Position numbers and translations under genes: made by a program. Under the pieces are notes generated by a model. The model did not search any database and was not told where the DNA came from. It saw nothing but the letters and a program-made list of their open reading frames with translations. From NCBI GenBank assembly GCA_002395925.1, contig DGVM01000191.1:1-18748 (forward strand): 18,748 nucleotides of DNA. The letters run 5' to 3'. This document shows positions 9,130 through 16,476 of the stretch, in pieces (positions within the stretch are counted from its first letter, which is position 1; the number at the start of each line of letters is the position of its first letter). The DNA is from Bacteroidales bacterium UBA4284. GTDB lineage: Bacteria; Bacteroidota; Bacteroidia; Bacteroidales; UBA932.

Positions 9130-10334
9130 CGGAGCATCTTTAGCGCTTTGCGCAGCGAAGATACAAAATATTCCGCTTCCTGCATCGTATTGTACGGCGC
9201 AAATGACGCTCTCAGCAAGCCCGTGACTCCCAGACGGTCCATAAGGGGTTCGGCGCACATCTGCCCGGAGCGCAGCGCAATGCCCATCTTGTCCAGAATG
9301 AGTGCAAGGTCTTCGTGATGCGCACCCTGCGCTGCGAACGAAAACACCGGAGCCTTGAGGCTCAAGTCGCCGGTAGTTCCGAAAAGACGTATGCCGGGTT
9401 CCTGCAGGAGCGAACGATATACGAATTCTTTGACATCTTCCTGCGAAGAAGGCATCTGCCGCATGAGTTCGATTGCAGGAACGAAGGTCGGCGTGCCGGA
9501 AATATTCTGCGTACCGGCTTCGAACTTGCGTGGCAGAGGAGCCCAGGTGCTCGATTCCCAACTTACCGATTCTATCATCTCGCCGCCGCCGAACATAGGA
9601 GGCATCTGCTCCAGCAGTTCTCGGCCTCCCCATAGCACACCCGTACCCGGAGCAGCATACATCTTATGCCCGGAAAATGCGTAAAAGTCGCAGCCAAGCG
9701 CTTGAACATCAACCTTTTGATGAACAATCCCCTGCGCCCCGTCAACCACCAGCAGGACTCCGTTCCTGTGGCAGATTCGAGCTGCTTCCTCTACTGGATT
9801 GACAAGTCCGAGGACGTTGGATATATGCGCAATCGCGACGATTCTGGTGCGCGCGTTGATAAGGGTCTGCAGCTGTTCGACGCGCAGACGGCCGTTTTCA
9901 TCGACCTCAAGACGCCGCAGATGCGCTCCCTTTCGGCGGCAGAGCATTTGCCATGGAACGAGGTTGGAATGATGCTCTGCCTCGCTGACGATGATTTCGT
10001 CTCCCTCGTGCACAAAGGCCTCGCCAAGGCCGTAAGCAAGCAGATTGAGGGAGTGGGTGGCTCCGGAGGTAAAGATAATCTCGTCCGAGGATGGTGCGTT
10101 TACAAAGGAGGCGACGGCGCCGCGTGCGTTTTCGTAAAGCTCCGTAGCCTGAGCTGCGATGAGGTGAACCGCACGGTGAAGATTTGCGGTAGTATGTGCC
10201 GAAATATCTGACCAACAATCAATTACAGATTGCGGCCTAAGAGCGGTTGCGGCGTTGTCAAGATATACGAGCGGCTTACCGTACACGCTGCGCGAAAGCT
10301 GCGGGAAGAGGGAGCGGAGTTGTTCTGTCGTCAT
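9126..10334 (-). CDS. sufS: SufS cysteine desulfurase (group II)
   Basis: This PLP enzyme takes sulfur from L-cysteine, releasing alanine, for Fe-S cluster assembly. The protein has 402 residues, normal for the family. Landmarks are YLDNAATALRP (24-33), NLHRAVH (51-57), TSGATHSLNLLA (89-100), EAEHHSNLVPW with the PLP-stacking histidine (118-128), VDGAQG (197-202), SGHKMYAAPGTGVLWG with the PLP lysine K224, FEAGTQN (271-277), and RSGQMCAEPLM with the catalytic cysteine C360. The residues just before that cysteine are QM where enterobacterial SufS has HH. Start and stop both overlap neighbours as ATGA. No sufBCD scaffold genes are in the window, so they must lie elsewhere in the genome. Confidence 0.97.
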   Translation of the reverse strand: MTTEQLRSLFPQLSRSVYGKPLVYLDNAATALRPQSVIDCWSDISAHTTANLHRAVHLIAAQATELYENARGAVASFVNAPSSDEIIFTSGATHSLNLLAYGLGEAFVHEGDEIIVSEAEHHSNLVPWQMLCRRKGAHLRRLEVDENGRLRVEQLQTLINARTRIVAIAHISNVLGLVNPVEEAARICHRNGVLLVVDGAQGIVHQKVDVQALGCDFYAFSGHKMYAAPGTGVLWGGRELLEQMPPMFGGGEMIESVSWESSTWAPLPRKFEAGTQNISGTPTFVPAIELMRQMPSSQEDVKEFVYRSLLQEPGIRLFGTTGDLSLKAPVFSFAAQGAHHEDLALILDKMGIALRSGQMCAEPLMDRLGVTGLLRASFAPYNTMQEAEYFVSSLRKALKMLR

Positions 10335-11455
10335 ATTTTATTAAGTCCCAGACCCGGTCCGTCGGGCAGCGTCATAAGGCCGTCGCGCACCTTCATTCCG
10401 GAAAATAAATCATTGGTAATCAGTAAATTACCGTCTATATCACAAAAATCGGCAGCAGGGGAGAGGTGAGCTGCAGCCGTACAGGCGCAAGAGGTTTCGG
10501 TCATACAGCCAAGCATTACCGTCATGCCGTCGGCACGCGCCGCGGCTATCATCTTGCGAGCCTCCAGAAGCCCTGTGCATTTCATCAGCTTGATGTTTAT
10601 GCCGCTGAAAGCTCCGCGGATACGCGGGATGTCCCTGAGCCTCTGGATGGATTCGTCGGCTATCACAGGCAGCGGACTGCGCTCGGTAAGCCATGCCGTG
10701 TCGTCAAGCCTGTCCACGGGCAAAGGCTGCTCCACCAGCACAACGCCTTGCTCCTTGAGCCAATAAATCTCGTCCAGGGCCTTTTCGCGGTCTTTCCAGC
10801 CTTGATTTGCATCTACTGCTATGGGAAGATCGCTGACGCTGCGAATGGTCTTTATCATCATTTCGTCGCTGTCAAGACCCACTTTTACCTTAAGGATGCG
10901 ATACAGACCCGCGCACTCGAGCGTTTTTTGCTTTACTACTTCGGGAGTGTCTATTCCTATCGTAAAGCTCGTGGGACCGGCTTTAGCGGGGTTGTAGCCC
11001 CATATCCGGTAGAGCGGCTCGCCGAGCAGTTTACCAGTAAGGTCGTGGAGGGCGATGTCTATCGAAGCCTTGGCAGGGGAGTCTCCGGCAGAAAGGGAAT
11101 CCAGATATTCCATTATATCCTCCAGCAGAAAAGGACTGCTGAAGGAACTCAGATCTACATTTGACAGGAAAGAGCATACGCTCTGCACAGTATGTCCGAG
11201 ATACGGTGGCATGGAGGCCTCGCCATATCCGACTACACCGTCGTACTCTATTTCTACCTGCACGCCCGGCGTGGTTTTACGGGAATAGGAAGAGACGGTA
11301 AAAGTATGCGCAAGCTGGAGTTCGTAAGGATAGAAACGCAGCCTCATCGGACCGCTGTGCTCGTTTTTAACCGGCTCCGGGCGCAGTCCGCACGAAGACA
11401 GGCCCGCTGCCAGCGCTGCGCCTGCACCTATTGCTAAGAACTCTCTTCTGTCCAT
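10331..11455 (-). CDS. Dipeptide (L-Ala-D/L-Glu type) epimerase with Tat-like lipoprotein signal
   Basis: The 374-residue enolase-superfamily enzyme carries the muconate-lactonizing subgroup residues. These are the KxK pair K189/K191 in LKVKVG, metal ligands D215 (VDANQGW), E242 (VEQP) and D267 (ADES), and the second base region K289 (INIKLMKCTG). The C-terminal DIDGN (339-343) holds the Asp-x-Asp typical of dipeptide epimerases, which in peptidoglycan recycling interconvert L-Ala-D-Glu and L-Ala-L-Glu. The N-terminus MDRREFLAIGAGAALAAG followed by LSSC gives a twin-arginine motif, a hydrophobic stretch and a lipobox cysteine at C22. The enzyme is therefore probably exported folded and lipid-anchored, unlike the usual cytoplasmic form. 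It heads the operon and its stop overlaps sufS as ATGA. Substrate is inferred from family motifs only. Confidence 0.88.
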   Translation of the reverse strand: MDRREFLAIGAGAALAAGLSSCGLRPEPVKNEHSGPMRLRFYPYELQLAHTFTVSSYSRKTTPGVQVEIEYDGVVGYGEASMPPYLGHTVQSVCSFLSNVDLSSFSSPFLLEDIMEYLDSLSAGDSPAKASIDIALHDLTGKLLGEPLYRIWGYNPAKAGPTSFTIGIDTPEVVKQKTLECAGLYRILKVKVGLDSDEMMIKTIRSVSDLPIAVDANQGWKDREKALDEIYWLKEQGVVLVEQPLPVDRLDDTAWLTERSPLPVIADESIQRLRDIPRIRGAFSGINIKLMKCTGLLEARKMIAAARADGMTVMLGCMTETSCACTAAAHLSPAADFCDIDGNLLITNDLFSGMKVRDGLMTLPDGPGLGLNKI

Positions 11456-11522: not shown

Positions 11523-12116
11523 ATGCTAGAATATGTATTCGGCCGCATTGCGGAACTGACTCCTACCAGGATGGTGGTTGACAATCAGGGCGTCGGCCAC
11601 TGCTTCGAGATTTCTCTCCAGACCTACGAAAAACTGGAGGGTAAGACAGAGGCCCTCATCTACATCCAGTCACAGTTCAACCAGCGCGACGGAACAAACG
11701 TCGATTACGGCTTTGCAACCAAAGATGAAAGGGAACTGTTCCGCCTGATTACCGGCGTTTCCGGGATGGGTGCCGCCAGCGCCAGGATGATTCTTTCGTC
11801 AATGACGGCAGGGGAGTTGGAAGACGCCATCTTGTCCGAAAACGTGAACGCGCTCAAATCGGTAAAGGGCATAGGACTTAAGAGTGCGCAGCGAATGATC
11901 CTGGAGCTCAAAGACAAAATCGTTAAGGGAGGCAGAGCTTCTGCAGACGTGCTCTTCGCATCAGAATCGAACGCTGCCGCAGAAGAAGCTACAAGCGCCC
12001 TTGTCATGCTCGGATTCAACAAGGCAAACATCCAGAAGGCCGTTCAGGCAATTCTCAAGGCAAATCCACGCGCCAGCGTAGAGCAGATCATAAAGTCCGC
12101 TTTACAGATGCTATAG
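11523..12116 (+). CDS. ruvA: Holliday junction branch migration protein RuvA
   Basis: RuvA binds Holliday junctions as a tetramer and loads the RuvB motor. The 197-residue protein has the three expected parts: an N-terminal OB fold (MLEYVFGRIAELTPTRMVVD to about residue 63), two helix-hairpin-helix motifs (ITGVSGMGAASARMIL, 76-91; LKSVKGIGLKSAQRMIL, 111-127), and after an Ala/Glu-rich linker the small C-terminal RuvB-contact domain (EEATSALVMLGFNKANIQKAV). The ATG at 11523 is preferred to an in-frame TTG three codons earlier because LEYVFG is where the family starts. It stands alone on the plus strand, converging on mnmG with a parS-like palindrome between them. ruvB is not in the window. Confidence 0.97.
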   Translation: MLEYVFGRIAELTPTRMVVDNQGVGHCFEISLQTYEKLEGKTEALIYIQSQFNQRDGTNVDYGFATKDERELFRLITGVSGMGAASARMILSSMTAGELEDAILSENVNALKSVKGIGLKSAQRMILELKDKIVKGGRASADVLFASESNAAAEEATSALVMLGFNKANIQKAVQAILKANPRASVEQIIKSALQML

Positions 12117-12123
12117 GTCATAA

Positions 12124-12139
12124 CGTTCCACGTGGAACA
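12124..12139. other. parS-like centromere site between ruvA and mnmG
   Basis: CGTTCCACGTGGAACA differs at only one end base from the palindrome TGTTCCACGTGGAACA, a known form of the chromosomal ParB-binding site parS. It lies eight bases after the ruvA stop and nine bases before the mnmG stop. A perfect copy is 319 bases away inside mnmG. ParB binding is inferred from the sequence. Confidence 0.8.
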
Positions 12140-12148
12140 GTAGAACTG

Positions 12149-14035
12149 TCAGCGCCCGAAATAGACAAGCAAGACAGAAATATCTGCCGGCGAAACTCCC
12201 GAGATACGGGAGGCCTGCGCAATGGTCCGGGGAGAGTATTTCTTGAATTTTTGCCGACACTCGATAGTCAAGCCAGATATTCTGTCAAAGTCAAAGCCTA
12301 CAGGTATCTCGAGATCTTCAAGACGACGCATCTTATCAACCAGAGCTCGTTCCCTGTCAATATATCCCCGGTATTTAAGGTTAATTTCGACGGCATCGGT
12401 TACATCTCGAGGTGGAATATCGTCGAAGCCAAAGCGCTGGAGTGTTCCACGTGGAACAAGAGACAGAATATCGGACAGAGCAAGCTCGGGCCGGGTTGCC
12501 ACGTCAGAAATCTTCTTAGACTCAGAAAGCGGTGCAGAACCACAGCTCTCGAGAAAAGCGTTCGCCGCTGCAGCGGTAAGATTATTTGAAACGCACAAAG
12601 AGTCTAGCCTCGCTACAGAATCGTATTTTTTCTTCATCAAATCGTAGCGCTCCTGGGAAGCGAGACCAAGCCGATACGAACGCTCGGTCAGACGAAGGTC
12701 GGCATTGTCTTGCCGCAGGAGAATACGAAACTCGGCACGCGACGTAAACATTCTATACGGTTCATCGACACCCTTTGTAATCAGATCGTCAATCAGGACT
12801 CCTATATAAGCCTCATCGCGCCTGAGAATAAACGGGGGCTGCGAATTAACGGAAAGATGGGCGTTGATTCCCGCCATGAGACCCTGCGCCGCCGCTTCTT
12901 CGTAACCGGTTGTTCCGTTGACCTGACCGGCAAGAAAGAGTCCCGGAACAACCCTCGACTCAAGAGACGAAGACAGCTGGGTCGGATCGAAGAAATCGTA
13001 TTCCACAGCATAGGCGGGACGGAACACCCTGACATGCTCCAGGCCATCAATGGCACGGAGAGCACGCATCTGAACTTCGAACGGAAGGGAACTCGAAAAG
13101 CCCTGCAGATAGAATTCGTTTGTCCCTCGTCCTTCCGGTTCAAGAAAGAGCTGATGCGAATCATTATCAGGAAAAACACGGAGTTTATCTTCGATGCTCG
13201 GACAGTAGCGGGGTCCGCGACCATGTATGATACCGGTAAACAGAGGCGAGTCCTGGAATCCTTCGCGAAGACGGGAATGAACCTCTTCGTTTGTGTGAAC
13301 GATGTAACAGTCCATCTGTTCTCGCCCGCCTTGGACTGCAGATGGTATATCCAGAAAGGAAAACCTTTCAGGACACCGGTCACCCTTTTGAACCGGCAAC
13401 CTGGACAAATCAACTGAGCTGATATCAATTCTCGGAGGAGTTCCTGTTTTCATCCTGTCGGCAGTTATCCCCATAGAGACCAATTCCTGGGTAATACCGT
13501 CCGAAGACTGTTCACCGATTCTTCCTCCGGTGAACTGCTTGCGCCCGACGAAAAGTTTACCGGCAAGGAAGGTTCCAGCAGTAAGAACAACGGCGCGAGA
13601 GTGAAAAATCAGACCGCCGGCAGTACGCACGCCGGCAATTTTTGAATTCTCAAAGAGAAAACCAGTTGCTAAATCTTCGTAAATAGTTAAGTTACAGGTA
13701 TTTAGAAGGATTTCGCGCCATTTCAGCGAAAATCGGATTTTATCGCACTGGGCGCGAGGGCTCCACATCGCCGGCCCTTTTGACTTGTTAAGCATGCGGA
13801 ACTGCAAGCTCGTGGCATCGGTAACAATTCCGGTACAACCTCCGAGTGCGTCGATCTCCCGCACGATTTGTCCTTTGGCAATTCCGCCGATAGCTGGATT
13901 GCAACTCATCTTGGCAAATGAGAGCACATCCATGCTGAGAAGCAGCACGGAGGAACCAAGCCTCGCTGCGGCAACCGCAGCCTCACAGCCGGCATGTCCA
14001 CCGCCGACAACTATGACATCGAAATTACTTTGCAA
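12149..14035 (-). CDS. mnmG: tRNA uridine-5-carboxymethylaminomethyl(34) synthesis enzyme MnmG (GidA)
   Basis: MnmG with MnmE modifies the wobble uridine of several tRNAs using FAD, NADH, glycine and methylene-tetrahydrofolate. The 628 residues are full length. They show the FAD-binding VVGGGHAGCEAA (9-20), CNPAIGGIAKGQIVREIDALG, MLNKSKGPAMWSPRAQCDK, KTGTPPRID, RGPRYCPSIEDK, the second FAD motif GQVNGTTGYEEAAAQGL, TSRAEFRILLRQDNADLRLT, and the C-terminal MnmE-contact helices ending VLLVYFGR. No ATG or GTG is available before FDVIVVGGG. The start is TTG at 14035-14033, preceded by GAGGA, and it overlaps the end of ybeY by 11 bases. Codons 526-531 carry a perfect parS palindrome, read as VPRGT. 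Confidence 0.97.
   Translation of the reverse strand: MQSNFDVIVVGGGHAGCEAAVAAARLGSSVLLLSMDVLSFAKMSCNPAIGGIAKGQIVREIDALGGCTGIVTDATSLQFRMLNKSKGPAMWSPRAQCDKIRFSLKWREILLNTCNLTIYEDLATGFLFENSKIAGVRTAGGLIFHSRAVVLTAGTFLAGKLFVGRKQFTGGRIGEQSSDGITQELVSMGITADRMKTGTPPRIDISSVDLSRLPVQKGDRCPERFSFLDIPSAVQGGREQMDCYIVHTNEEVHSRLREGFQDSPLFTGIIHGRGPRYCPSIEDKLRVFPDNDSHQLFLEPEGRGTNEFYLQGFSSSLPFEVQMRALRAIDGLEHVRVFRPAYAVEYDFFDPTQLSSSLESRVVPGLFLAGQVNGTTGYEEAAAQGLMAGINAHLSVNSQPPFILRRDEAYIGVLIDDLITKGVDEPYRMFTSRAEFRILLRQDNADLRLTERSYRLGLASQERYDLMKKKYDSVARLDSLCVSNNLTAAAANAFLESCGSAPLSESKKISDVATRPELALSDILSLVPRGTLQRFGFDDIPPRDVTDAVEINLKYRGYIDRERALVDKMRRLEDLEIPVGFDFDRISGLTIECRQKFKKYSPRTIAQASRISGVSPADISVLLVYFGR
12443..12458. other. 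Perfect parS-like palindrome inside mnmG
   Basis: TGTTCCACGTGGAACA is a perfect 16-base inverted repeat and an exact form of the bacterial parS site bound by ParB. It sits within codons 526-531 of mnmG, so the site is kept inside coding sequence. Together with the copy at 12124-12139 it forms a two-site cluster. Confidence 0.85.
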
Positions 14036-15300: not shown

Positions 15301-16476
15301 ATGACAGAAGAAAAAGCAGTATTCGTAGGAATAATACGGCAGACTGACGACGAAAGGAGGGTAAAAGAGTATCTCGACGAACTCGAATTCCTTGCCGACA
15401 CGGCAGGATTCGTAGCAGACAAGCAGTTTATCCAGAAACTCGACCACCCTGAGCACTCCACCTACATCCGCAGCGGGAAACTGCAGGAGCTTGCCGACTA
15501 CTGCGAAGAAAACGAAATCAAATACGTTATTTTCGACGATGAGCTTTCTCCGATGCAGCAACGTAACATCGAGAAAATCATCAAGGTGGCTTCCGTCATA
15601 GACCGTACGAGCCTGATTCTGGAAATATTCTCCCAAAGGGCCAAGACCGCATATGCAAAGATGCAGGTCGATCTGGCACGCTACAATTACATGCTTCCCA
15701 GGCTCGCAGGAATGTGGACCCACCTCGAGAGACAAAGGGGAGGTATAGGCACGCGCGGAGGTATGGGTGAAAGCCAGATCGAAGTTGACCGTCGAATAGT
15801 AAGGGAAAGGATAGCCCGCCTGAAAGAACAGCTGAAGAAGGTGGACAAGCAGATGGCTACCCAAAGAAGCAACCGCGGCCAGATGGTACGTCTGTCCCTT
15901 GTTGGCTATACCAACGTAGGAAAAAGCACTCTGATGAATCTGCTGTCGAAATCCGATGTCTTTGCAGAAAACAAGTTGTTCGCAACTCTGGATACCACAG
16001 TAAGAAAAGTCGTTATAGAGAACGTACCATTCCTGCTCAGCGACACTGTAGGATTCATCAGAAAACTCCCCACACAGCTCATAGAAGCCTTCAAAAGCAC
16101 ACTCGACGAGGTAAGGGAGGCCGACATACTTATCCACGTCGTAGATATATCCGCACCGGATTTTGAGGAACAAATGGAGGTGGTACAGAAAACCCTTGCA
16201 GACATTGGAGCAGGAGACAAGCCGCAGTATGTCATATTCAATAAAATCGACAACTACGAATGTGTTCCCTACGACGAGTTTTCCATTAAGCCGAAAGGCA
16301 AGGAAAACCGCACACTCGACGAGCTTAAAGAGCAATGGATAGGAGAAAAGAAGATACCTTGCATCTTTATGTCCGCACTTAGCCGCGAGGGGCTTCCGAA
16401 ACTAAGGAACGACATCTACAAGATGGTCGCCGAGATACATGCAGGACGCTGGCCATTCAATAATTTCCTGTGGTAA
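15301..16476 (+). CDS. hflX: Ribosome-associated GTPase HflX
   Basis: HflX binds the 50S subunit and splits stalled or stressed ribosomes. The 391-residue protein has the N-terminal HflX domain (MTEEKAVFVGIIRQ to about 150), the family signature RGGIGTRGGMGESQIEVDRR, a helical linker (IARLKEQLKKVDKQM), and a G domain with G1 GYTNVGKST (202-210), a G2 region LDTTVRKV, G3 DTVGF (248-252), G4 NKID (314-317) and G5 in FMSALSREG. The ATG at 15301 is chosen over an in-frame TTG at 15292 that falls inside the terminator T run. No promoter can fit between that terminator and the ATG, so read-through or an upstream promoter with the hairpin in the leader is implied. The downstream membrane gene overlaps by seven bases. 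Confidence 0.96.
   Translation: MTEEKAVFVGIIRQTDDERRVKEYLDELEFLADTAGFVADKQFIQKLDHPEHSTYIRSGKLQELADYCEENEIKYVIFDDELSPMQQRNIEKIIKVASVIDRTSLILEIFSQRAKTAYAKMQVDLARYNYMLPRLAGMWTHLERQRGGIGTRGGMGESQIEVDRRIVRERIARLKEQLKKVDKQMATQRSNRGQMVRLSLVGYTNVGKSTLMNLLSKSDVFAENKLFATLDTTVRKVVIENVPFLLSDTVGFIRKLPTQLIEAFKSTLDEVREADILIHVVDISAPDFEEQMEVVQKTLADIGAGDKPQYVIFNKIDNYECVPYDEFSIKPKGKENRTLDELKEQWIGEKKIPCIFMSALSREGLPKLRNDIYKMVAEIHAGRWPFNNFLW

What the first reader, a model, noticed from the sequence alone, without database searches (positions are those of the whole stretch)
12124..12458. Two parS-like centromere palindromes, one in the ruvA-mnmG gap and one inside mnmG
The sequence shows TGTTCCACGTGGAACA exactly at 12443-12458 and with one end-base change at 12124-12139, 319 bases apart, and no other copy that I found in the window. 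Two near-identical 16-base palindromes so close cannot reasonably be chance. This palindrome is an established form of the ParB site parS, and parS sites cluster near oriC and often near gidA (mnmG). I infer that this locus is ParB-loaded and origin-proximal. The inner copy also fixes the mnmG codons for VPRGT, so a protein and a centromere share the same bases.
Basis: partly seen in the sequence, partly recalled or inferred. Interest (0 to 1): 0.7.

Follow-up and report, generated by a model that had tools for sequence, protein, structure and literature searches.

The report
Chromosome centromere inside a tRNA-modification gene
The two palindromes are almost certainly the parS centromere sites of a Bacteroidales chromosome; in most relatives examined they sit in or beside one housekeeping gene, mnmG, and in this lineage the centromere dictates five amino acids of that gene's protein.

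Summary
Both palindromes are real (12124-12139, one end base off; 12443-12458, exact). The exact 16-mer equals Pseudomonas parS2/parS3. Across 72 Bacteroidales-type mnmG genes the in-gene site is kept at DNA level: codons V527, P528, R529, G530 show 0, 3, 2, 0 synonymous changes on the tree, the four lowest of 191 comparable codons (median 31). In 33 relatives' whole genomes, 31 have the strict motif, 48 sites in all, 47 in or within 2 kb of mnmG. In the listed parts of order and class surveys, 70 of 75 sites lie within 2 kb and 59 of 67 within 3 kb of mnmG. In four single-contig genomes the site is 2-64 kb from the local GC-skew minimum, with dnaA 0.66-2.5 Mb and parB 0.15-1.6 Mb away. ParB occurs in 32 of 32 relatives. 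parS inside genes is known; what I did not find in the papers searched is a class-wide tie of the centromere to mnmG, apart from parAB and dnaA, and its entry into the reading frame at two protein positions. ParB binding is untested, and the window's own genome was not available.

The parts
12443..12458 (.). in-gene parS site, perfect 16-bp palindrome TGTTCCACGTGGAACA; on the minus strand its core is mnmG codons 527-531 (VPRGT)
   Evidence: identical to P. aeruginosa parS2/parS3
12124..12139 (.). second parS site, CGTTCCACGTGGAACA, in the 32-bp ruvA-mnmG convergent gap, 9 bp beyond the mnmG stop
   Evidence: a strict core at or within 60 bp after the mnmG stop in 23 of 70 relatives
12149..14035 (-). 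mnmG (gidA), tRNA U34 modification enzyme, 628 aa; host gene of the in-gene site
   Evidence: TIGR00136 773 bits, cut-off 525; PDB 3cp8
11523..12116 (+). ruvA, convergent neighbour on the other side of the second site
   Evidence: TIGR00084 168 bits, cut-off 85

Best explanation
The two palindromes are chromosomal parS centromere sites. ParB (encoded elsewhere, next to ParA in the closest relative) binds each palindrome as a dimer, loads and spreads over the mnmG region, and ParA moves this origin-proximal complex apart after replication. Shown by comparison: motif identity, rarity, position at mnmG, DNA-level conservation, nearness to the skew-inferred origin, presence of ParB with parS-type residues. 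Inferred: binding, spreading and segregation in this organism. The in-gene copy forces the mnmG codons and so the peptide VPRGT; the protein tolerates other residues there, whereas ParB recognition would not tolerate other bases.
For: Exact match to P. aeruginosa parS2/parS3. 58 of 61 VPRGT peptides in 72 genes use the same 14 bases GTTCCACGTGGAAC, expected 0.29% each from mnmG codon usage. Synonymous changes 0/3/2/0 at V527/P528/R529/G530 against a median of 31 over 191 columns. One amino-acid variant, VPRET in L054, is GTTCCACGTGAAAC, still a parS form. Whole genomes: 35 of 39 carry the motif, once or twice each; the reversed control pattern hits twice in all. Of G001-G033, 31 have it, 47 of 48 sites in or within 2 kb of mnmG, 31 inside it. 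Order: 254 of 296 genomes; 70 of the 75 listed sites (48 genomes) within 2 kb of mnmG, 69 of them within 250 bp. Class: 221 of 247; 59 of 67 sites in 31 genomes within 3 kb. Skew minimum near parS in 4 of 4 genomes. ParB in 32 of 32; Q162, G170, K171, R173, N178, G201 kept in the closest relative.
Against: No ParB binding data. The window's own genome is not held, so its ParB, site count and origin were not seen. GC skew inside the window is weak with its cumulative minimum at 15,726, and no TTWTNCACA DnaA box was found in it. 13 of 72 mnmG genes lack the strict core, and 42 of 296 genomes of the order lack it anywhere. Of 16 of those 42 that I examined, 14 had mnmG; 8 of the 14 had a palindrome with up to 2 mismatches within about 150 bp of it and 6 did not, while genome-wide such relaxed matches (63) barely exceed the reversed control (47). 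The skew is noisy in G271, whose raw cumulative minimum is at the contig start beside dnaA and moves to 2.485 Mb only after removal of the net trend, and shallow in G164; in G228 the site lies at the edge of the bracket. In three of four genomes the local minimum is 33-64 kb off the site. ParB positions 172 and 204 are K instead of S and R.
Confidence: 0.94

Rival explanations
1. VPRGT is a functional protein motif of MnmG and the DNA palindrome is a by-product of its codons.
For: VPRGT is in 111 of the 120 listed closest MnmG proteins (of 8000 found), and the AlphaFold2 model puts it at an ordered turn and the start of a helix (residue blocks 521-530 and 531-540 at pLDDT 91).
Against: Codon choice is frozen, which a protein motif does not explain. 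Close relatives have VPKDF, VPKAV, VPDRV, VPQRS, VPEKV and others at the spot, the Spirosoma and Fibrella loci lack it, and C. tepidum and E. coli MnmG differ there. The same palindrome occurs outside the gene beside mnmG.
Confidence: 0.02
2. The palindromes are transcription terminators or RNA hairpins of convergent ruvA/mnmG.
For: One palindrome lies in the convergent gap.
Against: Three terminator-like sites were called in 11900-12700 (0.9 expected), none at either palindrome, and Rfam has no match in the window at gathering scores. Relatives carry sites upstream of mnmG (19 of 75 listed sites) and inside it.
Confidence: 0.02
3. The palindromes bind another factor, such as a local regulator of mnmG/ruvA, rather than ParB.
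For: Nearly all listed sites are at one locus, as a single-target operator would be.
Against: The motif is identical to verified parS, occurs in the Y/R arm variants known for parS, and lies near the skew origin.
Confidence: 0.02

Closest known systems
Chromosomal parS of the ParABS system (P. aeruginosa parS1-parS10; PMC4368675, passages seen)
   Same: Same 16-mer as parS2/parS3; four sites near oriC; that paper puts 9 of 10 sites most likely within coding sequences.
   Different: Here 1-2 strict sites per genome in the relatives, in or beside one gene, and far from parB and dnaA in the four genomes tested.
gidA-gidB-parA-parB origin genes (list in PMC2099444, passages seen)
   Same: mnmG (gidA) is a classical origin-neighbour gene.
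   Different: In the four genomes tested mnmG and parS are near the skew origin while parB (0.15-1.6 Mb) and dnaA (0.66-2.5 Mb) are elsewhere.
parS and origins of gut bacteria incl. B. caecimuris and M. intestinale by Hi-C (PMC10197239, passages and section 20 seen)
   Same: That study placed ori from parS clusters and GC skew, supported by read coverage, and noted that ori does not always coincide with dnaA.
   Different: Its main text does not contain mnmG or gidA.

Membership tests
chromosomal parS site | 16-bp palindrome TGTTYCACGTGRAACA or near form | tested here: met
chromosomal parS site | few copies per genome, clustered | tested here: met
   in relatives only: (47 of 48 sites at mnmG in 31 genomes); own genome not held
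chromosomal parS site | origin-proximal | tested here: met
   four single-contig genomes of the order, by GC skew only, two of them noisy; not testable in the window's own genome
chromosomal parS site | cognate ParB with parS-type recognition residues | tested here: met
   in relatives; R173 and G201 kept, 172 and 204 are K
chromosomal parS site | ParB binds and spreads from it | not testable with these tools
   needs ChIP-seq or in vitro binding
chromosomal parS site | needed for segregation | not testable with these tools
   needs genetics
intrinsic terminator | GC stem followed by T run at the palindrome | tested here: not met
   3 terminator-like sites in 11900-12700, none at the palindromes
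MnmG protein motif | amino acids kept while synonymous codons drift | tested here: not met

The most novel reading that the evidence does not exclude
In the class Bacteroidia mnmG is the chromosome's centromere anchor: parS has stayed with mnmG near the replication origin while parAB and dnaA moved away, and the centromere has entered the mnmG reading frame at least twice at different protein positions (residue 527 here as VPRGT; about residue 490 in three other genomes as VSRGT/VSRET), so a DNA-partition site dictates part of an enzyme's sequence over an order-wide time span.
Probability: 0.65. Interest if true: 0.7.

Novelty: new variant of a known kind. Interest (0 to 1): 0.6.

Why it matters
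Chromosome segregation in Bacteroidota, major gut bacteria, is little studied, and no known condensin was found in the two members that one Hi-C study examined (PMC10197239, section 20). This gives a precise, testable centromere and perhaps a better origin marker than dnaA, which matters for replication-rate estimates from metagenomes. It is also a clean natural case of a DNA site imposing codons and amino acids on an enzyme.

Tried and rejected
Terminator and RNA-element readings were tested and dropped. A protein-motif reading was tested by synonymous conservation and rejected. I looked for DnaA boxes in the window and found none, so oriC itself is not placed. Coding-strand bias in the sampled genomes was uninformative. 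Disorder of the VPRGT linker, which I expected, was not seen in the AlphaFold2 model. Ten paper searches gave nothing I could see that ties parS to mnmG in Bacteroidota; 'pars sites' with 'mnmg' gave 0 papers and with 'bacteroidota' 0 papers. This is judged from listings; of the listed papers I opened passages or sections of only six. The main survey of parS (Livny 2007) is not held, so I cannot say that it does not mention this.

Full report
Observation. The gap between ruvA (ends 12116) and mnmG (stop at 12149, minus strand) is 32 bp and holds the first; the second is in frame in mnmG.

Conservation. One scan of species genomes with MnmG, using peptide patterns that do not include VPRGT, gave 80 loci: L001-L071 and L073 are by title Bacteroidales, Bacteroidia, Bacteroidota or named genera such as Cryptobacteroides, Merdivivens and Muribaculum; L072 and L074-L080 are Spirosoma, Fibrella or Spirosomataceae. 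Of L001-L070, 58 carry the strict core GTTYCACGTGRAAC inside mnmG and 69 the core or a form with up to 2 mismatches; 23 carry a core at or within 60 bp after the stop; 19 have both; 8 have no core in mnmG or within 2 kb after it. In 72 genes (window and L001-L071) 61 peptides are VPRGT and 58 of them have the identical 14 bases. Of 191 codons that are at least 85% conserved in amino acid and at least 4-fold degenerate, V527, G530, R529 and P528 have the four lowest synonymous entropies and the four lowest numbers of synonymous changes on a tree built without that region: 0, 0, 2, 3; median 31. So the DNA, not only the peptide, is conserved. Against this, three VPRGT genes (L037, L040, L046) have one synonymous change that breaks the core, and 10 others have lost it with other peptides, for example VPRGI in L010 and VLCGT in L035, L048, L049 and L059. 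In all the strict core is missing in 13 of 72 genes, at least 5 changes on the tree.

Whole genomes. The window's own genome is not held. In 39 genomes of fetched loci, 35 have the motif, once or twice each; the reversed control pattern hits twice in all. For the 33 genomes G001-G033, 31 have it, 48 sites in all; 47 lie in or within 2 kb of mnmG, 31 inside; one (G023) is on another contig. I left G035 (L073) out of that count; its one site is just after mnmG. In the order of G028, 254 of 296 genomes have it. The listing there is cut; for the 48 genomes and 75 sites listed, 70 sites are within 2 kb of mnmG (50 downstream and 19 upstream within 250 bp, 1 further downstream), 3 are on other contigs and 2 further off. 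In the class of G036, 221 of 247 have it. For 31 genomes (28 listed there for the first time, and 3 Spirosoma) 59 of 67 sites are within 3 kb of mnmG. The exceptions are G533 (three sites, 21 kb), two of three sites in G553 (3.3 and 3.7 kb) and the three Spirosoma genomes (10-11 kb). Eight further genomes listed were already in the earlier set and were left out of this count; of these G063 and G123 were not examined. Of 16 of the 42 genomes of the order without the strict motif, 14 have mnmG and 8 of these have a palindrome with up to 2 mismatches within about 150 bp of it, two with mirror-image changes on both arms (G131, G161); 6 have none near. Genome-wide such relaxed matches (63) are hardly more than the control (47), so only their place is telling.

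Origin and partners. In four genomes with one large contig, GC skew was sampled as 20-kb stretches. After removal of the net trend the cumulative minimum falls between stretches 1.715 and 1.870 Mb (G248; site 1.804), 2.485 and 2.650 (G271; 2.629), 4.490 and 4.770 (G164; 4.666) and 2.194 and 2.362 (G228; 2.362 and 2.375, at the edge). G271 needs the detrending: its raw minimum is at the contig start, beside dnaA; G164 is shallow. The minimum within 200 kb lies 33 kb (G248), 64 kb (G228), 2 kb (G271) and 64 kb (G164) from the nearest site. In the same order (G248, G228, G271, G164) dnaA is 1.27, 1.07, 0.66 and 2.5 Mb away on the circle and parB 0.42, 0.15, 0.76 and 1.6 Mb (distances computed by hand, taking the contig as the whole chromosome; G164 has about 0.3 Mb on other contigs). 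ParB was found in 32 of 32 genomes, over the curated cut-off in 31, as one match in 29; G028 has three matches, G035 two, and G029 two weak pieces. In the genome of the closest relative (L001) parB follows parA; its ParB matches ParB structures and keeps R173 and G201, which separate ParB from Noc, and Q162, G170, K171 and N178, but has K at 172 and 204 (residue list from PMC7383237, passages seen; read off the alignment by eye, since the numbering in my script was off). The 21 ParB sequences that my script extracted from 30 loci all have K at both places.

Other in-frame copies. Three further genomes of the class (G482, G428, G355) have a core inside mnmG at another point, about residue 490, in the same reading phase, giving VSRGT, VSRET and VSRET. 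The different place in the alignment suggests a separate entry into the gene; I did not test this on a tree. In G533 the sites encode VPRET and VSRGT in two other genes. The AlphaFold2 model (21 sequences, chosen to include variants of the peptide; mean pLDDT 76) places VPRGT at an ordered turn and the start of a helix, not in a disordered loop.

Mechanism. ParB dimers bind each palindrome, load and spread, and ParA separates the two origins. This rests on the established function of parS and ParB and on the comparisons above; binding was not shown. parS within genes is not new: 9 of 10 sites in P. aeruginosa most likely lie in coding sequence, and parS2/parS3 are this very 16-mer (PMC4368675, passages seen). 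New, as far as the searched papers go, is the tie to mnmG across a class, away from parB and dnaA, and the imprint on the protein.

Noticed in passing
G248, G271, G164, G228: dnaA lies 0.66-2.5 Mb from the parS/mnmG locus near the GC-skew origin in four Bacteroidales genomes, so numbering chromosomes from dnaA probably misplaces the origin.
   Followed up: partly
G271:C1 2665745-2665970 (L245): Three TTWTCCACA DnaA-type boxes within about 220 bp, 36 kb from parS: a possible oriC. No such cluster was found in the 200-kb windows of the other three genomes.
   Followed up: partly
L081-L110 ParB genes: All 21 ParB proteins that the script extracted have lysine where Caulobacter ParB has S172 and R204, both parS-contact positions.
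   Followed up: no
L010 7714, L046 7709, L054 7709: A sub-lineage shares a near-parS palindrome TTTTCCACGTGGAACA about 2.3 kb upstream of mnmG while its in-gene site is altered: possibly a centromere on the move.
   Followed up: no
G366 and G427: Two genomes of the class have 12 and 9 core motifs, more than the usual 1-3; their places were not listed.
   Followed up: no
window 10331-11455 (-): Enolase-superfamily epimerase; best NCBIfam match DgcA (N-acetyl-D-Glu racemase) at half its cut-off, so the exact substrate is unclear.
   Followed up: no
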